From: Methanobrevibacter sp. YE315
Lineage (GTDB): Archaea > Methanobacteriota > Methanobacteria > Methanobacteriales > Methanobacteriaceae
DNA: 64,000 nucleotides
Assembly: GCF_001548675.1 (NCBI RefSeq)
Contig: NZ_CP010834.1
Location: 624,001-688,000, forward strand
Reading direction: 5' to 3'
Shown here: positions 46,828-55,146 of the stretch, piece after piece
Layout: the number at the start of each line of letters is the position of its first letter
Numbering within the stretch: the stretch's first letter is position 1
Made by a program: the position numbers and the translations under genes
Notes under the pieces: model-generated
Databases searched by the model: none
What the model was told of the DNA's origin: nothing
Seen by the model: the letters and a program-made list of their open reading frames with translations, nothing else

Positions 46828-47178
46828 ATGATACCTGGAATGAATAAAAAACAAATGAAACAAATGGAAAGACAAATGAAAAAAATGGGCATGAAAATGG
46901 AAGATTTAGAAGGTGTCCGTGAAGTTATTATCCGTTTTGATGATAAAGAATTAATTATTGATGATCCTAGTGTAAGTTTAATGAATGTGATGGGTCAAGA
47001 AACTTACCAGATAGATGGTAAAGCCCGTGAAGTCGAACTTGAATATGAAATCGAAATTCCAGATGAGGATGTTGAAATGGTAGCCAATAGTGCAGGTGTT
47101 TCTAAAGATGAAGCAAAAGCAGCTTTGGAAGAATGCAAAGGAGACCTTGCTGAAGCTATCATGAAATTAAACCAATAG
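46828..47178 (+). CDS. nac: nascent polypeptide-associated complex protein
   Basis: The 116-residue archaeal NAC has a NAC barrel (REVIIRFDDKELIIDDPSV about 31-49) after a Met/Lys N-terminus that contacts the ribosome, and a C-terminal UBA domain (SKDEAKAALEECKGDLAEAI). It forms homodimers at the exit tunnel. It is followed after 5 bases by the phosphodiesterase gene. Confidence 0.95.
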   Translation: MIPGMNKKQMKQMERQMKKMGMKMEDLEGVREVIIRFDDKELIIDDPSVSLMNVMGQETYQIDGKAREVELEYEIEIPDEDVEMVANSAGVSKDEAKAALEECKGDLAEAIMKLNQ

Positions 47179-47183
47179 ATAAT

Positions 47184-47927
47184 ATGACTGTTATTGCACA
47201 TATTTCAGATTTGCATGTTAGCAGATTCCATTTCGATGAAGATGTTTTCATGCAGGCTGTAAGCGAAATCAATGACTTGCAACCGGATATGATTATACTG
47301 ACTGGAGATATAACCAGCGATGGTTATTATAAGCAGTTCGAACAAGCAACAAAATATTTAGAATTGTTTGAAGCACCATTATTTGCCGTTCCTGGAAACC
47401 ATGATGCCCGTAATTTGGGTTATCTCACTTTTGAAGAGTTAATCGGTGAAAAAAGTTGGAAACTAACAATGGGTGATGAATTAACCGTAATAGGATTGGA
47501 TAGCAGTTCTCCTGATGAAAATAGGGGCCATATTGGAAGTCCTCAGCACATGTGGTTGGAACATCAATTAGATGAATGTGTCATTAATGAAAATTTTTCA
47601 ATTATCGCTTTGCACCATCATGTGATTTCAATTCCTCAAACAGGCCGTGAACGTAATGTTTTATCAGATGCAGGGGATATTTTAAAGACTTTAACCACTC
47701 ATGAAGTTGATTTAGTTTTATCAGGTCACAAGCATGTTCCAAATATTTGGAAAATAAATAATACAATCGTTGTTAATGCAGGTTCATTATGTTCAACAAA
47801 GCTTAGAGGAAAAATAAATAACTCCTATAATGTTTATAACATAAATAAGGAAGAAATAGAGATTTTTCTCCATAATGTTGGTGGAGAAAAATTTTTATTT
47901 GGAAAATATCCAAGGAATAAACTATAA
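47184..47927 (+). CDS. calcineurin-like phosphoesterase, CpdA-like
   Basis: The 247-residue protein has all metal ligands of a class III cyclic-nucleotide phosphodiesterase-like enzyme: DLH (residues 9-11), GD (41-42), GNHD (71-74), HHH (144-146) and GHKH (181-184). Such enzymes cut cyclic nucleotides or other phosphodiesters. It sits between nac and an NYN ribonuclease gene, 79 bases before the latter. A link with the palm-domain protein two genes on is proposed below. Confidence 0.85.
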   Translation: MTVIAHISDLHVSRFHFDEDVFMQAVSEINDLQPDMIILTGDITSDGYYKQFEQATKYLELFEAPLFAVPGNHDARNLGYLTFEELIGEKSWKLTMGDELTVIGLDSSSPDENRGHIGSPQHMWLEHQLDECVINENFSIIALHHHVISIPQTGRERNVLSDAGDILKTLTTHEVDLVLSGHKHVPNIWKINNTIVVNAGSLCSTKLRGKINNSYNVYNINKEEIEIFLHNVGGEKFLFGKYPRNKL

Positions 47928-48006
47928 ATTAAATTTAAATAATAGAATACAAAAATATATTATACTGAATTGAATTAAGATTAATAATATATTGTTAGGT
48001 GATATT

Positions 48007-49032
48007 ATGAAAGTAGTCGTTGATGCTTCTAATGTAGCTTATCATGTAAAAAATGAAAATGGGCAACCTAAAATCTCTAATATTCTTTCTGCTGTTAAAG
48101 CATTGGAAGAAAGTGAAGATGAATTTGTAATTATTGCCGACGCATCACTTCGTCATGACATTGATGATAAGGAAAAATATTTGAAATTGTTGGAAAGCGA
48201 AAATGTAGAGGAAGTTCCAGCAGGTAATGATGCAGACCATTTTATTTTAGAAATAGCCTATGATGAAAAAGCTAAAATATTGTCTAATGATAAATTCAGA
48301 GATTATGCTGCTGAATTTAAAAACATTTCTTCTATGAGGATTCCATTTATCATTGAAAACGGCAGACTCACATTTGGAAAACCTAAAAAGCCTAAAAAAG
48401 ATAAAAATATTCTTCAACATATCTGTAATGAAATAATTAAGGAATTGGAATTTAAAAAATGGGAAATATATACTGGTAAGGAAGGTTTGGAGATATCCCC
48501 ATTGAATATTGCTAAACAAGCTATTATTCGTATTGACAATGAGAGTAATGCAGACTCTAAACTGGAAAATATCTTCTCAAAAATCCCAATGTTTAATAAG
48601 ATTGTAGAGATGGTTGACGATGTTGAAGTGGCTGCTCCATATGTGATATTTGTATTAGTTCACCCTAAGGATTATAAGGTTGCAGTAAAAAATGCTGGAA
48701 ATATATCAGTCACCGTTGCAGATAGATTAGGTCTTGAAAAGAAACCTTTGATTGCTGTTCGTAATGACTTATTCACTAAACCGGGTACTTTTGAATTGAA
48801 TATTCTTTTGGCAGATGAAGTAACTGAATACGCTCCATATAATATTTTAATTCGTGTAAGCACTCATGATGAAGTATTCATCAAAAGAAACTCTAGAAAT
48901 ATTGCTAGTACAATAGCTGGAAGACTTGGATCTTGGAAATTCCCTTTTGTTTCTGTCAAACCAGACATGTTTTTAGAAAAACCTGGCGAGTTTGAAATTG
49001 AACTTGAGAAGGGAGGGGGCTTAGATGGTTAA
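48007..49032 (+). CDS. NYN (Zc3h12a-like) ribonuclease with duplicated C-terminal domain
   Basis: About 341 residues. The N-terminus (VVVDASNVAYH, D6 and N9), ADAS (D45), NDADHFILEIAY (D75/D77) and SNDKFRDY (D95, D99) match the catalytic Asp set of Zc3h12a-type NYN ribonucleases. A basic linker (KPKKPKKDK) follows. Residues 213-267 and 280-332 are repeats of one domain (KNxxNIxxTxAxRLGxxKxP, then DxFxKPGxFE). ATG 48007 with TAGGTGAT is preferred to the upstream TTG at 47992. The stop overlaps the next start by 8 bases. Confidence 0.75.
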   Translation: MKVVVDASNVAYHVKNENGQPKISNILSAVKALEESEDEFVIIADASLRHDIDDKEKYLKLLESENVEEVPAGNDADHFILEIAYDEKAKILSNDKFRDYAAEFKNISSMRIPFIIENGRLTFGKPKKPKKDKNILQHICNEIIKELEFKKWEIYTGKEGLEISPLNIAKQAIIRIDNESNADSKLENIFSKIPMFNKIVEMVDDVEVAAPYVIFVLVHPKDYKVAVKNAGNISVTVADRLGLEKKPLIAVRNDLFTKPGTFELNILLADEVTEYAPYNILIRVSTHDEVFIKRNSRNIASTIAGRLGSWKFPFVSVKPDMFLEKPGEFEIELEKGGGLDG

Positions 49033-50227
49033 TCCTTTAACCAAGGCTATTATTAAACTTACTACTAAATTAGAACCGATTGCTGTTGGAACAAAATTTT
49101 TTCCAACAAATTCTCTTGAAACTGAATATGTAGAGTTGTTTAATTATACTCAAACCATTCTTTTCGAACTTGAAAAGGCGGAAATCAATTCAGACACCAT
49201 TTTGCAAAATCTTATAAGGGATGTCGGTGCAGAAAATATTCCTTCAGATTATAGTTTTTATGAATTGAAGCCTGCTGAGAATAAGATTGAAGAGTATGCC
49301 TTGGTAAGTAATATCATCATGGGTAGTGATCGTTATTTCTATATTGAATTACCTAATCCTTCAAACCTAATTAATATTTTTGTTAAGATTATTGAAACTG
49401 AAAAGGGGGAAGTTGTTGAAAAAACAGCAACTGAACTTGTTGCAAAAATGTTAAGTAAAAATGATGCAATCCGTGTAGCTATTGAACTTATTGGAATAGG
49501 ATTGTCCGAGGGAGTTCAAGTCATTTCCGCAGTGGGCATGACTGGTGCGGCTTCTATTGAACGTGCTATTCATTACACTCAAAATGTAGGTACTTTTCCA
49601 GGTATTGCATTTACAAAATTAGGCGGAGAGTATGCGCTTGTTTTCGATTCCCCATTCCTGCTTCAACAATCAAAACCAATTGATTTAGAAAATTATCTGT
49701 TCATTGACTTAATTAATTCTACAAAATTCATAGATAAGAACGGTAGAAATCAGCTTGTGGAATTAATGACAGGTATTAAAAATTTCATTGAAACGGAATG
49801 TGACGGGGAATTGGAAGGTTATCGTGAAGGTGGGGATGATTTTATAGCAAGATTCCCATCAAAAGATTTGGCTATTCGTGCAGGTCTTGATGCCGCATGG
49901 TTTGCATTAGATAACGGTGCAAAAATCAGGGCAGGAATAGGCAGAAGTAGAAGAGAAGCTGGAGAGAGGGCTCAACTTGTTGATAGTCTTCAATCAACAT
50001 CTCCATTATCTTTAGTTGTATTTGAATTAGCTAATGGATTATATGCATATAACATTCCTTCAGAATTCACAAGAACTTTGATTAACTTAATTGAAAATGA
50101 AAAAGCAAAATTAATTGGAATATTTGCATTTGTGTTTATTTTCACATATTTAATGTCAGTTTTAGGTTTGGGAGTATATAGTTTTATAGGCATAATTTTG
50201 GCTTTAATTTATGCATTTGTTGCTTAA
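49025..50227 (+). CDS. membrane-anchored palm-domain protein with GGDDF motif
   Basis: The 400-residue protein has a helical N-terminal region (1-210), a palm-like domain (about 222-320) and a C-terminal pair of membrane helices (365-399). In the palm, FIDLINSTKF has the first metal Asp (D228), and EGGDDF (268-273) replaces GGDEF; KIRAGIG and ERAQLVD follow. This fits the superfamily of class III cyclases, GGDEF enzymes and Cas10 palms. A nucleotide product is likely but not known. It overlaps the NYN gene, so the two proteins are made together. Confidence 0.65.
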   Translation: MVNPLTKAIIKLTTKLEPIAVGTKFFPTNSLETEYVELFNYTQTILFELEKAEINSDTILQNLIRDVGAENIPSDYSFYELKPAENKIEEYALVSNIIMGSDRYFYIELPNPSNLINIFVKIIETEKGEVVEKTATELVAKMLSKNDAIRVAIELIGIGLSEGVQVISAVGMTGAASIERAIHYTQNVGTFPGIAFTKLGGEYALVFDSPFLLQQSKPIDLENYLFIDLINSTKFIDKNGRNQLVELMTGIKNFIETECDGELEGYREGGDDFIARFPSKDLAIRAGLDAAWFALDNGAKIRAGIGRSRREAGERAQLVDSLQSTSPLSLVVFELANGLYAYNIPSEFTRTLINLIENEKAKLIGIFAFVFIFTYLMSVLGLGVYSFIGIILALIYAFVA

Positions 50228-50252
50228 TGAAATTTAAAAAAAGAGAAATAGT

Positions 50253-50597
50253 ATGAGGCGGAAGAAAGATAATAAAAGGGTTTTAATCCCTAGAAATCAA
50301 ATGAATGCTCATCAAAATCAGAGGAATGCAAGGAAAAAGAAAAAGAAAGGCAGTGGTAAACTTTTGTTCCTTATGATTCTTGCTTTGGTTGCATTCGTAA
50401 TTGGTGCAGGAATTGGAATTTCCTTTACTTTGGATGATTCTTCTGAGGGAGCTCATTGGGAGAATGTCACAGAAGAAATGACTAATTTGTCAAATAATAC
50501 AGATTCCATAGATTATGATGTGGAATTGGATCGCGTTGATTATAACGATAATGAAACTATAGCAAAATTAAATCTTACAACTGAACCGTCATATTAG
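50253..50597 (+). CDS. small single-pass membrane protein
   Basis: A 114-residue protein with a very basic, Asn/Gln-rich cytoplasmic tail (about 1-35, with RKKKKKGSG), one membrane helix (37-57) and an acidic exterior tail rich in Asn, Asp and Thr. I do not know its function. It lies 25 bases after the palm-domain gene and abuts argJ, so it belongs to this transcript. The topology allows interaction with RNA or phospholipid on the inside. Confidence 0.6.
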   Translation: MRRKKDNKRVLIPRNQMNAHQNQRNARKKKKKGSGKLLFLMILALVAFVIGAGIGISFTLDDSSEGAHWENVTEEMTNLSNNTDSIDYDVELDRVDYNDNETIAKLNLTTEPSY

Positions 50598-52138: not shown

Positions 52139-52729
52139 ATGCATGGTCATAGAGCTCATGGATTTTCTAGTGCACTGTTTTTAGATTCCGATGAAATTTT
52201 AGGAGAGTTGAATCTAAAAGGTGATGAAACTTTTATGGATGCGGGATGTGGTGACGGCCATATTGCAATAAAAGTAGTTGAAGAATATCTTCCTGACGGT
52301 ACTGTTTATGCTGTGGATGTTTATGATGCATCAATTGAAGATATGGAGACATATAAAAATGAAAACAACATTGAAAATTTAATTAACATTGAAGCCGACA
52401 TTACAAAGGGAATTCCTGGTGTAGATGATGAATCTATTGATGTTGTTTTAATGGTTAATGTATTCCACGGATTTAAAGCATCAAGAACTATGGATGAAGC
52501 CATTGAAGAATTTTCAAGGATTATTAAAAAAGACGGAAAAATAGCAATAATGGACTATAAAGCATGGGATGTTCCAAAAGGACCTCCAACTGCATTTAGA
52601 AGTTCTCCTGAAGAACTGGAAGAAATTTTCAATAAGCATAATCTAAAAATGACATATTTAAACGAAGAGATTGGTGAAGATATCCCTCAAGGCAAATCTC
52701 ACTTTTTCATCGTATTTCAAAAAGAATAG
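52139..52729 (+). CDS. class I SAM-dependent methyltransferase (copy 1)
   Basis: The 196-residue protein has motif I MDAGCGDGHIAIKV (about 35-48) and the acidic post-I residue VDVYDAS, then DVVLMVNVFHGF (motif IV-like). The short N-terminus is His-rich (MHGHRAHGFS). The substrate is unknown; similar proteins are named ubiquinone/menaquinone-type or UbiE-like. GGTGATT precedes the ATG. It is a paralogue of the next gene. Confidence 0.8.
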   Translation: MHGHRAHGFSSALFLDSDEILGELNLKGDETFMDAGCGDGHIAIKVVEEYLPDGTVYAVDVYDASIEDMETYKNENNIENLINIEADITKGIPGVDDESIDVVLMVNVFHGFKASRTMDEAIEEFSRIIKKDGKIAIMDYKAWDVPKGPPTAFRSSPEELEEIFNKHNLKMTYLNEEIGEDIPQGKSHFFIVFQKE

Positions 52730-52831: not shown

Positions 52832-53419
52832 ATGGAACATAAACATCATGGAAAATCAAGTTCAGGGTATTTAGATGGTGATGAAATTTTAAAAGAATTT
52901 GATTTTAATGGAAATGAGACTTTTATGGATGCAGGTTGTGGAGATGGATATATTGCTAAAAATGCAATTGATAATTATCTTCCCGACGGCACTGTCTATG
53001 CAGTGGATGCCTATGATCAATCCATAAAAGATTTAGAAAATTATAAGAAGGAAAATAATGTTGATAATTTAATTAATATCGAAGCGGACATTGCTAAGGG
53101 GATTCCAGGTGTTTATGACTCTTCAATCGATGCTGTTTTAATGCTTAATGTTTTCCATGGGTTTAAAGCATCTGGGGAAATGGATAAAGTAATCGATGAG
53201 TTGGCTAGAATAATAAATGATGATGGTAAAATAGCAATTATGGATTTTAAACCATTAGATATGCAAAGAGGACCTCCAATCGAAATTAGAAGCTCACCAC
53301 AAGAGTTGGAAGAAATATTTAATAACCATAATCTTAAAAAAATATATTTGAATGAAGATATTGGTGAGGATATTCCAGAAGGCAAATCTCACTATTTGAT
53401 AATGTTTAAAAAGGAGTAA
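52832..53419 (+). CDS. class I SAM-dependent methyltransferase (copy 2)
   Basis: A 195-residue paralogue of the preceding protein, sharing MDAGCGDGYIA, VDAYDQS and LNVFHGFKASGEMD with the same spacing, and the end IGEDIPEGKSHYLIMFKKE. The two probably arose by tandem duplication and then diverged in the first 20 residues (MEHKHHGKSSSG). It is 7 bases before tarI, so it may be co-transcribed with the CDP-ribitol genes. GGGGGATT precedes the ATG. Confidence 0.8.
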   Translation: MEHKHHGKSSSGYLDGDEILKEFDFNGNETFMDAGCGDGYIAKNAIDNYLPDGTVYAVDAYDQSIKDLENYKKENNVDNLINIEADIAKGIPGVYDSSIDAVLMLNVFHGFKASGEMDKVIDELARIINDDGKIAIMDFKPLDMQRGPPIEIRSSPQELEEIFNNHNLKKIYLNEDIGEDIPEGKSHYLIMFKKE

Positions 53420-53426
53420 GGTTTCA

Positions 53427-54137
53427 ATGATTTTTGCAGCAATCTTGGCAGGTGGAATAGGATCTAGGATGGGTGGCACTGACACTCCAAAACAATTTTT
53501 GGATTTGGGAAATAAGCCGGTCATAATTCATACAATTGAAAAGTTCGTTATTAATAAAAAAATAGATAAGATTATTGTTTTAACTCCAAAAAACTTCATT
53601 GACCATACTAATCATTTGATTAATGAGTATATTGGATTTGATGATGAGATTATTGTTATTGAAGGTGGAAAAACAAGAAACGACACCATAATGAACAGTA
53701 TCAGTTACATTAATGATGAATTTGGCATTGATGAAGACTCAATAATCATTACTCATGACTCTGTGCGTCCATTTGTAACCCATAGAATCATTGAAGACAA
53801 TATTGAAGCTGCAAAAAAATATGGGGCTTGCGATACTGTAATTCCAGCTACAGATACGATTGTTGAAAGCATCAACGGCGCGACCATTGAAAGCATTCCC
53901 GTAAGGGATTATTATTACCAAGGTCAAACACCACAGAGCTTCAATATAAAGAAACTTTATAACTTGATTACTAGTTTAACGGAAGAAGAATCCAATATAC
54001 TTACAGATGCATGTAAGATATTCACACTTAAGGACGAAGATGTACATCTAGTTGAGGGTGAAGTGACAAATATTAAAATTACATACCCTTATGACTTAAA
54101 ATTAGCAAATACTATACTTGAGGATATTCATGATTAA
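53427..54137 (+). CDS. tarI: ribitol-5-phosphate cytidylyltransferase, TarI-type
   Basis: The 236-residue protein joins CTP and a sugar-alcohol phosphate. Key motifs are AAILAGGIGSRMG (3-15), TPKQFLDLGNKPVIIHTIEKF (in part), ITHDSVRPF and IPVRDYYYQGQTPQSFNIK (in part). The family also includes IspD, but archaea use the mevalonate route, and the gene overlaps a tarJ homologue by 8 bases, as in Gram-positive teichoic-acid loci. So CDP-ribitol is the likely product. GGAGTAAGG precedes the ATG. Confidence 0.85.
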   Translation: MIFAAILAGGIGSRMGGTDTPKQFLDLGNKPVIIHTIEKFVINKKIDKIIVLTPKNFIDHTNHLINEYIGFDDEIIVIEGGKTRNDTIMNSISYINDEFGIDEDSIIITHDSVRPFVTHRIIEDNIEAAKKYGACDTVIPATDTIVESINGATIESIPVRDYYYQGQTPQSFNIKKLYNLITSLTEEESNILTDACKIFTLKDEDVHLVEGEVTNIKITYPYDLKLANTILEDIHD

Positions 54138-55146
54138 CATTGTTTACAGATTAAAATCTCCAAAGTTCTTTGAAGAGGCAATAGATGAAATTGAATTGGA
54201 CGGCATTGTAGTAAGGCCGCTTTATCTTTCAATCTGTCAAGCTGACCAAAGGTACTATCAGGGGTCAAGGCCGGTTGAAGTCTTGGAAAAAAAATTGCCT
54301 ATGGCATTAATCCATGAAGGAGTTGGAGAGGTGGTATTTGACTGCAATAATAACTTTAAACCTGGTGATAAGGTTGTAATGATACCGAATACCCCTTCAG
54401 GTGAAGATGTCTGCAGATTAAATTATTCTTATAATTCAAAATTCAGGGGAAGTGGTTTTGACGGATTCACTTCCGATTTAATTAAACTTGATGAAGATAG
54501 GGTCATAAGGATTCCGGATGATTTCAATCTTCATGTTTCATCATTCATTGAACTGATTTCAGTAGCCTATCAGGGAATCACAAAATTTAATGATATAGCC
54601 ATTACTCCAAAAGACAAATTGGGAGTTTGGGGTGATGGGAATTTAGGTTTCATAACCTCACTTCTTTTAAAGGAAATGTTTCCGGATTCAAAGGTATATG
54701 TATTTGGAAAACATCAGGATAATCTAAGCCTATTCACTTTTGCAGATAAGGTTTATCAGATTCATAATGTTCCTGACGACCTTGTAATTGACCATGCTTT
54801 TGAATGTGTTGGTTCCAGTGCATCACAAGCAGCTATTGAACAGATAATCGATTTGATTAACCCTCAAGGAACAATTAATTTATTTGGAGTAAGCGAATAT
54901 CCGATTCCAGTAAATACTCGTATGATTCTAGAAAAGGGATTGACCGTTCAGGGAAATAGCCGTTCCGAAAGAGAAGATTTTGTTGGAGTCATTGAAACTC
55001 TCAAACAAAACCCAAAATTATTTGAATATTTGGGAAAACTGGTTACCAACGTTTGCGAAATAAACTCTTTAGATGATTTAAAAGAGGCATTTGACAAAGA
55101 CTACATTTATCGCTTTGGCAAAACAATTTTGAAATGGAATAAATAA
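54130..55146 (+). CDS. tarJ: ribulose-5-phosphate reductase, TarJ-type
   Basis: About 338 residues of the zinc/MDR alcohol dehydrogenase superfamily. It is very like staphylococcal TarJ: RPLYLSICQADQRYYQGSRP (about 29-48), LPMALIHEGVGEVVFD, VVMIPNTP, WGDGNLGFITSLLL and HAFECVG. It reduces ribulose 5-phosphate to ribitol 5-phosphate, the TarI substrate. ATG 54130 with GAGGAT is preferred to TTG 54118. The pair probably came from Firmicutes; the ribitol acceptor is not visible here. Confidence 0.88.
   Translation: MINIVYRLKSPKFFEEAIDEIELDGIVVRPLYLSICQADQRYYQGSRPVEVLEKKLPMALIHEGVGEVVFDCNNNFKPGDKVVMIPNTPSGEDVCRLNYSYNSKFRGSGFDGFTSDLIKLDEDRVIRIPDDFNLHVSSFIELISVAYQGITKFNDIAITPKDKLGVWGDGNLGFITSLLLKEMFPDSKVYVFGKHQDNLSLFTFADKVYQIHNVPDDLVIDHAFECVGSSASQAAIEQIIDLINPQGTINLFGVSEYPIPVNTRMILEKGLTVQGNSRSEREDFVGVIETLKQNPKLFEYLGKLVTNVCEINSLDDLKEAFDKDYIYRFGKTILKWNK

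What the first reader, a model, noticed from the sequence alone, without database searches (positions are those of the whole stretch)
47184..50597. Possible nucleotide second-messenger module: phosphodiesterase, NYN ribonuclease, membrane palm-cyclase
Seen: three adjacent plus-strand genes code a CpdA-like phosphoesterase with all metal ligands, an NYN ribonuclease with full Asp set, and a palm-domain protein (D228, GGDDF 269-273) with two C-terminal membrane helices; NYN and palm genes overlap by 8 bases. Known: palm enzymes of the GGDEF/class III cyclase/Cas10 group make cyclic or linear nucleotides, CpdA-like enzymes destroy them, and NYN proteins cut RNA. Inferred: a signal is made at the membrane, degraded by the phosphodiesterase and read by the ribonuclease, perhaps through its duplicated C-terminal domain. 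The setting beside nac and argJ suggests a housekeeping stress or translation-quality role rather than a phage-defence island.
Basis: partly seen in the sequence, partly recalled or inferred. Interest (0 to 1): 0.78.

Follow-up and report, generated by a model that had tools for sequence, protein, structure and literature searches.

The report
Archaeal nucleotide cyclase–RNase gene pair
Methane-making archaea with pseudomurein walls carry, almost without exception, a linked gene pair: a membrane-anchored enzyme that looks like a distant cousin of the cyclases that make cyclic AMP, and a partner protein that in most of them also carries an RNA-cutting domain. It may be an unrecognised signalling system and the missing source of cyclic AMP in these organisms, but no activity has been tested.

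Summary
The genes are as described. The palm protein (49025-50227) is a single-copy core gene, found in 148 of 152 Methanobacteria genomes and in all five Methanopyrus-like genomes, and in none of the 368 other archaea searched. D228 and GGDD (269-272) never vary. It is a tandem palm: a degenerate N-terminal palm, a catalytic-type C-terminal palm and a C-terminal membrane hairpin. Profile searches match only class III nucleotide cyclases among the significant PDB hits (best E 1.6e-5). The AlphaFold model matches class III cyclases first and archaeal GTP cyclohydrolase III second. Pfam and NCBIfam have no model for it.

The NYN gene is next to it in 40 of 40 Methanobacteria loci examined. In Methanopyrus the partner keeps only the duplicated C-terminal domains and has no NYN nuclease. 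The conserved core is therefore tandem-palm enzyme plus duplicated-domain partner. The RNase is a lineage-specific part, and the phosphodiesterase is dispensable: several near-complete genomes lack it. The signalling idea is plausible but unproven.

The pair is very probably 'cluster D' (NYN RNase + nucleotide cyclase) of Lupo et al. 2025, so adjacency and lineage restriction are not new. New here are the tandem-palm anatomy, the NYN-less Methanopyrus version and the link to the unexplained cAMP of Methanothermobacter.

The parts
46828..47178 (+). nac gene (nascent polypeptide-associated complex protein); context, not part of the core module
   Evidence: NCBIfam TIGR00264 equivalog, E 1e-37, above its cut-off. 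Order nac-MPE-NYN-palm is common in Methanobacteria but not in Methanopyrus.
47184..47927 (+). calcineurin-like metallophosphoesterase (class III PDE/CpdA/GpdQ superfamily); optional neighbour, 5 bp after nac
   Evidence: Pfam Metallophos E 1.4e-19; PDB profile hits GpdQ 2dxl/2zo9 and Rv0805 2hy1; missing or moved in several genomes that keep NYN-palm.
48007..49032 (+). NYN-type ribonuclease with a duplicated C-terminal domain, partner of the palm protein
   Evidence: Pfam RNase_Zc3h12a E 2e-17; Foldseek of the model to the ZC3H12C PIN/NYN domain E 4e-7; invariant active-site residues.
48010..48366 (+). NYN (Zc3h12a/Regnase-like) nuclease domain; absent from the Methanopyrus homologue
   Evidence: profile match to ZC3H12A/B/C and KHNYN, best E 2.8e-6 over residues 3-121; Methanopyrus match starts at residue 132 of the profile.
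48625..49023 (+). tandem repeat of an approx. 60-residue beta-alpha-alpha-beta-beta unit, the part shared with Methanopyrus
   Evidence: repeat against repeat by hhalign: probability 97.6%, E 2.6e-12; secondary structure; Methanopyrus homology over residues 132-337, E 1.9e-38.
49025..50227 (+). tandem-palm, class III cyclase-like membrane protein (400 aa)
   Evidence: No Pfam or NCBIfam family.
49322..49660 (+). degenerate N-terminal palm (residues 100-212): metal positions replaced by E108/T136/E137; T173, A175, A176, E179 and R180 invariant
   Evidence: hhalign N-palm against C-palm: probability 98.0%, E 1.5e-13, 108 aligned columns; same strand/helix order in the model.
49679..50062 (+). 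catalytic-type C-terminal palm (residues 219-346): D228 at 49706-49708, GGDD at 49829-49840, K280
   Evidence: invariant in Methanobacteria and Methanopyrus; aligned to the metal Asp positions of Rv1900c and Ma1120.
50105..50221 (+). C-terminal membrane hairpin (two helices, residues 361-399)
   Evidence: helices in the model; hydrophobic windows 363-381 and 382-400 with mean Kyte-Doolittle 2.35; hydrophobic C-termini also in orthologues.
50253..50597 (+). small single-TM protein of low conservation, found only in close relatives; not part of the core
   Evidence: tblastn detects it in some Methanobrevibacter-group loci only, at 30-49% identity.

Best explanation
The pair encodes a two-protein nucleotide-handling unit of pseudomurein archaea. 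Shown by sequence and model: protein 1 is a membrane-anchored tandem palm of the class III cyclase group. Its C-terminal palm carries the two-metal acidic site (D228 with D271/D272). Its N-terminal palm has lost the metal ligands but kept its own invariant residues (T173, E179, R180), as in a pseudo-heterodimer where one half is catalytic and the other completes the site. Protein 2, encoded next to it and often translationally coupled, is a tandem-domain partner that in Methanobacteria carries an active-looking NYN ribonuclease. Inferred: the palm protein uses an NTP at the inner face of the membrane and makes a cyclic (or linear) nucleotide. The duplicated domains of protein 2 bind the palm protein or its product. 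In Methanobacteria this switches the attached RNase, coupling a membrane or envelope state to RNA turnover. The metallophosphoesterase may help remove the product in some lineages but is not required.
For: Only class III cyclases match the family profile significantly in the PDB: Rv1900c E 1.6e-5, Ma1120 E 0.004. In the structure search the AC9 tandem C1/C2 is first (E 1.1e-6), with Ma1120, Rv1900c and OaPAC following; GCH III 2qv6 comes at 1.9e-4. The acidic residues are invariant across two archaeal lineages. The tandem duplication is highly significant. The gene is present in 148 of 152 Methanobacteria and 5 of 5 Methanopyrus-like genomes, and in none of 368 other archaea. Partner linkage is kept in both lineages, overlapping or within a few bases in most loci. 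A Regnase-like active site is kept in the NYN domain. cAMP was reported in Methanothermobacter, and the review PMC8646023 says most archaea likely make it by a yet unknown route. Methanothermobacter-like genomes have no Pfam class III cyclase; in two related genomes a weak sub-threshold hit of that model falls inside the palm gene itself.
Against: The canonical class III transition-state Asn-xxx-Arg segment is missing from the C-terminal palm, and only an Arg (R180) is found in the N-terminal palm (by alignment). The second motif is GGDD, GGDEF-like rather than the cyclase GDG. Methanopyrus has no NYN domain on the partner, so the signal-to-RNase step is not needed wherever the pair occurs. 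No receptor fold was assigned to the duplicated domains. The inter-domain placement in the palm model is uncertain: rmsd about 14-20 A when both palms are aligned. All ten genomes checked also have a CYTH protein, another nominal cAMP-synthase family. No activity data exist.
Confidence: 0.45

Rival explanations
1. The palm protein is a metabolic, GTP cyclohydrolase III-like enzyme: it opens or hydrolyses a purine NTP in a biosynthetic step and makes no signal. The partner only stabilises or localises it.
For: GCH III is also a tandem palm with a GGDN motif and an AGIG segment much like the palm protein's. GCH III (2qv6) is the only non-cyclase in the top 50 fold matches, aligned over both palms. 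The two Methanopyrus-like genomes tested have the palm protein but no detectable GCH III.
Against: Profile-profile comparison with GCH III is weak (probability 2.4%), and GCH III is absent from the PDB profile hits while class III cyclases are present. Methanobacteria carry a separate full GCH III. Membrane anchoring and an RNase partner are unusual for a biosynthetic step.
Confidence: 0.2
2. The palm protein acts on RNA ends or adds nucleotides (Thg1- or polymerase-like), and with the NYN RNase forms an RNA-processing or quality-control unit at the membrane or ribosome.
For: Partner is an RNase. nac, a ribosome-associated chaperone gene, is often in the same gene string. An acidic dyad at the hairpin is also the pattern of palm polymerases (PMC2904730).
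Against: Sequence and fold searches prefer class III cyclases; no polymerase or Thg1 appears among the best 50 PDB matches. nac linkage is missing in Methanopyrus. No RNA-binding domain was recognised in the palm protein.
Confidence: 0.15
3. The palm protein is a non-enzymatic or only nucleotide-binding regulator: NTP binding at the tandem palm controls its partner, like an energy sensor.
For: Canonical transition-state residues are not found; one palm is degenerate.
Against: Complete invariance of D228, G269-D272 and K280 over two lineages is the pattern of catalysis.
Confidence: 0.15
4. A phage-defence system of the Panoptes/mCpol or CBASS type.
For: Combination of a palm nucleotide enzyme, a nuclease and membrane helices.
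Against: Core gene in almost every genome of the class with a stable housekeeping neighbourhood. No PADLOC match to the palm protein, none meaningful to the NYN protein. No mobile-element homologues. mCpol systems are described as relatively rare (PMC12657218), unlike this gene.
Confidence: 0.05

Closest known systems
Class III nucleotide cyclases (Rv1900c, Ma1120, AC9, OaPAC)
   Same: Palm fold, F-x-D-x-x-x-S/T first motif, Gly-Asp at the beta2-beta3 hairpin, catalytic site expected between two palms; only significant PDB profile matches.
   Different: GGDD instead of GDG; no canonical Asn-xxx-Arg segment in the catalytic palm; tandem degenerate/active palms in one chain with a C-terminal membrane hairpin; below Pfam PF00211 detection.
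GTP cyclohydrolase III (MJ0145, PF05165)
   Same: Tandem palms in one chain, GGDN/GGDD, AGIG segment; fold match E 1.9e-4.
   Different: Not matched by PF05165; separate paralogue in the same genomes; GCH III is about 250 residues and lacks the membrane hairpin and N-terminal extension.
Cluster D of Lupo et al. 2025 (OG0001213 NYN RNase + OG0001214 nucleotide cyclase, >1 TM), PMC11915815
   Same: Same annotations, gene linkage, TM prediction and restriction to pseudomurein archaea; almost certainly these genes.
   Different: Only listed there, as probably unrelated to wall synthesis. Tandem-palm anatomy, residue conservation and the missing NYN domain in Methanopyrus are not described in the text read. 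OG sequences could not be compared directly.
GGDEF diguanylate cyclases, Cas10 and mCpol (Panoptes OptS)
   Same: R-x-G-G-D-[DE]-F/L resembles the GGDEF signature; Cas10 also pairs a degenerate and an active palm (own knowledge).
   Different: None in the best 50 fold matches or the PDB profile hits. No CRISPR, CARF or 2TM-beta partner recognised beside the gene.
Zc3h12a/Regnase-type NYN ribonucleases
   Same: Nuclease domain of the partner; sequence and fold match.
   Different: Joined here to a lineage-specific duplicated domain and linked to a palm protein.
Archaeal GGDEF relatives typified by MK0296 (PMC2904730)
   Same: Described as a small archaeal family with three acidic palm residues, with pseudomurein archaea among the species in the paper.
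   Different: Identity with the present family could not be confirmed: in the M. kandleri-size genome the palm gene lies near 101 kb, and no GGD[DEN] palm protein was seen at 270-310 kb, where locus 296 would be expected.

Membership tests
class III nucleotide cyclase | detectable homology to the cyclase homology domain | tested here: met
   PDB profile search E 1.6e-5 to Rv1900c; Foldseek E 1.1e-6 to AC9 and many others; but below the Pfam PF00211 cut-off.
class III nucleotide cyclase | two metal-binding Asp (first strand and beta2-beta3 hairpin) | tested here: met
   D228 and D271 invariant and aligned to the cyclase Asp positions.
class III nucleotide cyclase | transition-state Asn and Arg on the partner palm | tested here: inconclusive
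   Segment missing in the C-terminal palm; N-terminal palm has invariant E179-R180 in a comparable helix but no Asn.
class III nucleotide cyclase | NTP to 3',5'-cNMP activity | not testable with these tools
   needs biochemistry
GGDEF diguanylate cyclase | RxGG[DE]EF signature and GGDEF-domain homology | tested here: not met
   [RK]xGGDD[FL] is similar, but no Pfam match and no GGDEF structure in the PDB profile hits or best 50 fold matches.
GTP cyclohydrolase III | PF05165 match | tested here: not met
   no PF05165 hit to the window protein or any of 41 orthologues at E<=1; separate GCH III gene in G000.
GTP cyclohydrolase III | tandem palm fold | tested here: met
   hhalign of the two halves E 1.5e-13; fold match to 2qv6 E 1.9e-4 over 255 columns.
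Zc3h12a-like NYN ribonuclease (partner) | domain match plus catalytic Asp/Asn set | tested here: met
   PF11977 E 2e-17, above cut-off; D7, N10, D78, D96 invariant; fold match E 4e-7. Domain absent in the Methanopyrus partner.
class III phosphodiesterase (CpdA/Rv0805) for 47184-47927 | metallophosphoesterase metal-ligand motifs | tested here: met
   DxH, GD, GNHD, HHH and GHxH positions invariant.
class III phosphodiesterase (CpdA/Rv0805) for 47184-47927 | specific membership of the cAMP-PDE equivalog | tested here: not met
   64 bits against a cut-off of 225 for NCBIfam 3',5'-cyclic-AMP phosphodiesterase.
Panoptes/mCpol defence system | mCpol with linked 2TM-beta effector, rare and scattered distribution | tested here: not met
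   near-universal core gene; no PADLOC match to the palm protein; the small TM neighbour is found only in close relatives.
cluster D of pseudomurein archaea (Lupo 2025) | adjacent NYN and nucleotide-cyclase genes present in Methanobacteriales and Methanopyrales only | tested here: met
   OG sequence identity itself not testable here.

The most novel reading that the evidence does not exclude
The family is a separate, archaeal kind of cyclic-nucleotide synthase: a membrane-anchored single-chain palm pseudo-heterodimer that is the missing source of cAMP (or another cNMP) in Methanothermobacter and its relatives, with a dedicated partner that in Methanobacteria turns the signal into RNA cleavage as a housekeeping rather than antiviral pathway.
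Probability: 0.25. Interest if true: 0.85.

Novelty: new variant of a known kind. Interest (0 to 1): 0.6.

Why it matters
cAMP was reported in Methanothermobacter in 1986, and a 2021 review concludes that most archaea probably make cAMP by a yet unknown route (PMC8646023). Here is a conserved class III cyclase-like candidate in exactly those methanogens, with active-site residues that can be mutated and a genetic partner that can be deleted. If it works as proposed it would be a housekeeping nucleotide-signal-to-RNase pathway, the sort of circuit otherwise known mainly from antiviral defence.

Tried and rejected
Rfam scan of the window: no RNA families.

Pfam, NCBIfam and PADLOC for the palm protein: nothing; 41 orthologues in Pfam: only scattered chance hits. 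PHROGs: nothing.

Single-sequence PDB search: nothing; only profiles worked.

Palm as a GCH III orthologue: rejected. GCH III is kept as the closest fold relative outside the cyclases.

Viral structure library: no match at E 0.001 or better; cyclase- and GGDEF-like proteins only at about 0.01 and weaker.

Fold of the duplicated NYN C-terminal domain: weak, mixed matches (thioredoxin-like, tautomerase/MIF-like) at E 0.007 or worse; not assigned.

MK0296 as the Methanopyrus palm: not confirmed.

Mobile origin of the palm: no plasmid or phage homologue.

Full report
WHAT WAS CHECKED. The three genes exist at the stated places: a metallophosphoesterase at 47184-47927, an NYN protein whose natural ATG is at 48007 (stop at 49032), and a 400-residue protein at 49025-50227. 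The last two overlap by 8 bases. A small TM protein (50253-50597) and argJ follow; nac lies 5 bp upstream of the phosphoesterase. The genome is a 2.27 Mb Methanobrevibacter-type archaeon (close relatives named).

DISTRIBUTION. The palm gene is found in 148 of 152 genomes of its class, and in 90 of the 91 that are at least 90% complete, as one match in nearly all. A profile that includes Methanopyrus finds it in all 21 Methanobacteria and all 5 Methanopyrus-like genomes of a 394-genome archaeal sample, and in none of the other 368. G181 has the length I recall for M. kandleri AV19 (1,694,969 bp) and G149 the length I recall for M. thermautotrophicus delta-H (1,751,377 bp); both identifications rest on my own knowledge. 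So the gene marks the pseudomurein-walled archaea. No plasmid, phage or PADLOC homologue of the palm was found.

NEIGHBOURHOOD. In 40 Methanobacteria loci from many genera the NYN gene is always directly upstream of the palm gene, usually overlapping or within a few bases. A few genomes show larger gaps (up to 2.5 kb) or contig breaks. nac-phosphoesterase-NYN-palm-argJ is the common order. The phosphoesterase is not obligatory: eight of nine g9 genomes, including the single-contig G024, have no orthologue at E 1e-10, and in several g12 genomes it lies elsewhere. In Methanopyrus the palm gene sits beside a 241-residue protein that matches only residues 132-337 of the NYN protein (E 1.9e-38) and has no NYN domain. 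The ancient unit is therefore palm plus duplicated-domain partner.

ANATOMY OF THE PALM PROTEIN. The AlphaFold model (34 sequences, mean pLDDT 82, pTM 0.72) shows an N-terminal alpha/beta part, then the same strand/helix order twice (residues 104-206 and 223-343), then two C-terminal hydrophobic helices. The two halves are homologous by profile comparison (probability 98.0%, E 1.5e-13, 108 columns). The C-terminal palm has D228 and G269-G270-D271-D272. In the N-terminal palm the corresponding positions are E108, T136 and E137; E108 is not kept in Methanopyrus, but T173, A175, A176, E179 and R180 are invariant across both lineages. K280 is also invariant. This is a pseudo-heterodimer in one chain.

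WHAT IT RESEMBLES. A PDB profile search with Methanobacteria alone has class III cyclases on top (Rv1900c E 0.0048). With Methanopyrus added, all six hits up to E 10 are class III cyclases or annotated as such, best E 1.6e-5, with D228 and D271 aligned to the cyclase metal Asps. Foldseek ranks AC9, Ma1120, Rv1900c and OaPAC first and GTP cyclohydrolase III (2qv6) at 1.9e-4. When both palms are aligned the rmsd is 14-20 A, so single palms match but the relative placement of the two is not established. GCH III itself is a separate gene in Methanobacteria, is not detected in the two Methanopyrus-like genomes tested, and aligns only weakly to the palm profile. The canonical cyclase Asn-xxx-Arg segment is missing, so I do not call it a canonical class III cyclase. 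It is a divergent tandem palm of that superfamily.

PARTNER. The NYN domain is Regnase/ZC3H12-like by sequence and fold (E 4e-7), with invariant D7, N10, D46, D78 and D96 (numbered from 48004). The C-terminal half is a true duplication (E 2.6e-12) of a beta-alpha-alpha-beta-beta unit of unassigned fold.

MECHANISM. Most likely the C-terminal palm catalyses two-metal chemistry on an NTP at the cytoplasmic face, completed by residues of the N-terminal palm, giving a cyclic nucleotide; the partner's duplicated domains bind the palm or its product; in Methanobacteria an attached RNase responds. Shown: fold group, conserved acidic site, tandem anatomy, predicted membrane hairpin, linkage. Inferred: catalysis, product, partner binding, RNase control. 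The phosphoesterase as degrader is possible but not general. The GCH III-like, RNA-end-processing and binding-only rivals are given with their tests.

PRIOR KNOWLEDGE. Lupo et al. [quoted passage not shown] This is almost certainly the same pair, so adjacency and restriction are known. Anantharaman et al. 2010 (PMC2904730) mention a small archaeal GGDEF-related family typified by MK0296 of M. kandleri; identity with this family could not be confirmed. cAMP was reported in Methanothermobacter, with the enzyme unknown in most archaea (PMC8646023). Pfam's class III cyclase model gives nothing over its cut-off in the Methanothermobacter-like genomes searched, while weak hits in two related genomes, G002 and G003, fall inside the palm gene. 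CYTH proteins, the other nominal source, occur in all ten genomes tested, but the same review reports that true class IV cyclases appear to be bacterial only.

VERDICT. Novelty: a new variant of a known kind (divergent tandem-palm cyclase-like enzyme with an RNase-bearing partner). The main value is that it makes the unexplained cyclic nucleotide of methanogens directly testable.

Noticed in passing
window 53427-54137: An IspD-family protein scoring far above the NCBIfam cut-off for D-ribitol-5-phosphate cytidylyltransferase (371 bits against 166), followed by an overlapping alcohol-dehydrogenase-like ORF at 54118-55146; it looks like a TarI/TarJ-type ribitol pair in an archaeon (the second gene by eye).
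   Followed up: partly
window 52139-52729 and 52832-53419: Two tandem, closely similar SAM-methyltransferase-like paralogues directly upstream of the ribitol pair (no NCBIfam match).
   Followed up: no
L218-L222 (Methanopyrus-like genomes): The Methanopyrus partner protein lacks the NYN nuclease domain and is transcribed divergently from an aspartate-kinase-like gene; a ThiC-like gene follows the palm gene (names by eye).
   Followed up: yes
G181 and G159 genomes: No GTP cyclohydrolase III (PF05165) detected in the two Methanopyrus-like genomes tested, although Methanobacteria have it.
   Followed up: no
G094 (C19:6098-6571) and G153: A class III cyclase-type match over the PF00211 cut-off in one Methanobrevibacter-genus genome, and several in an unrelated archaeon; in G153 a weaker PF00211 match falls inside its GCH III gene.
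   Followed up: no
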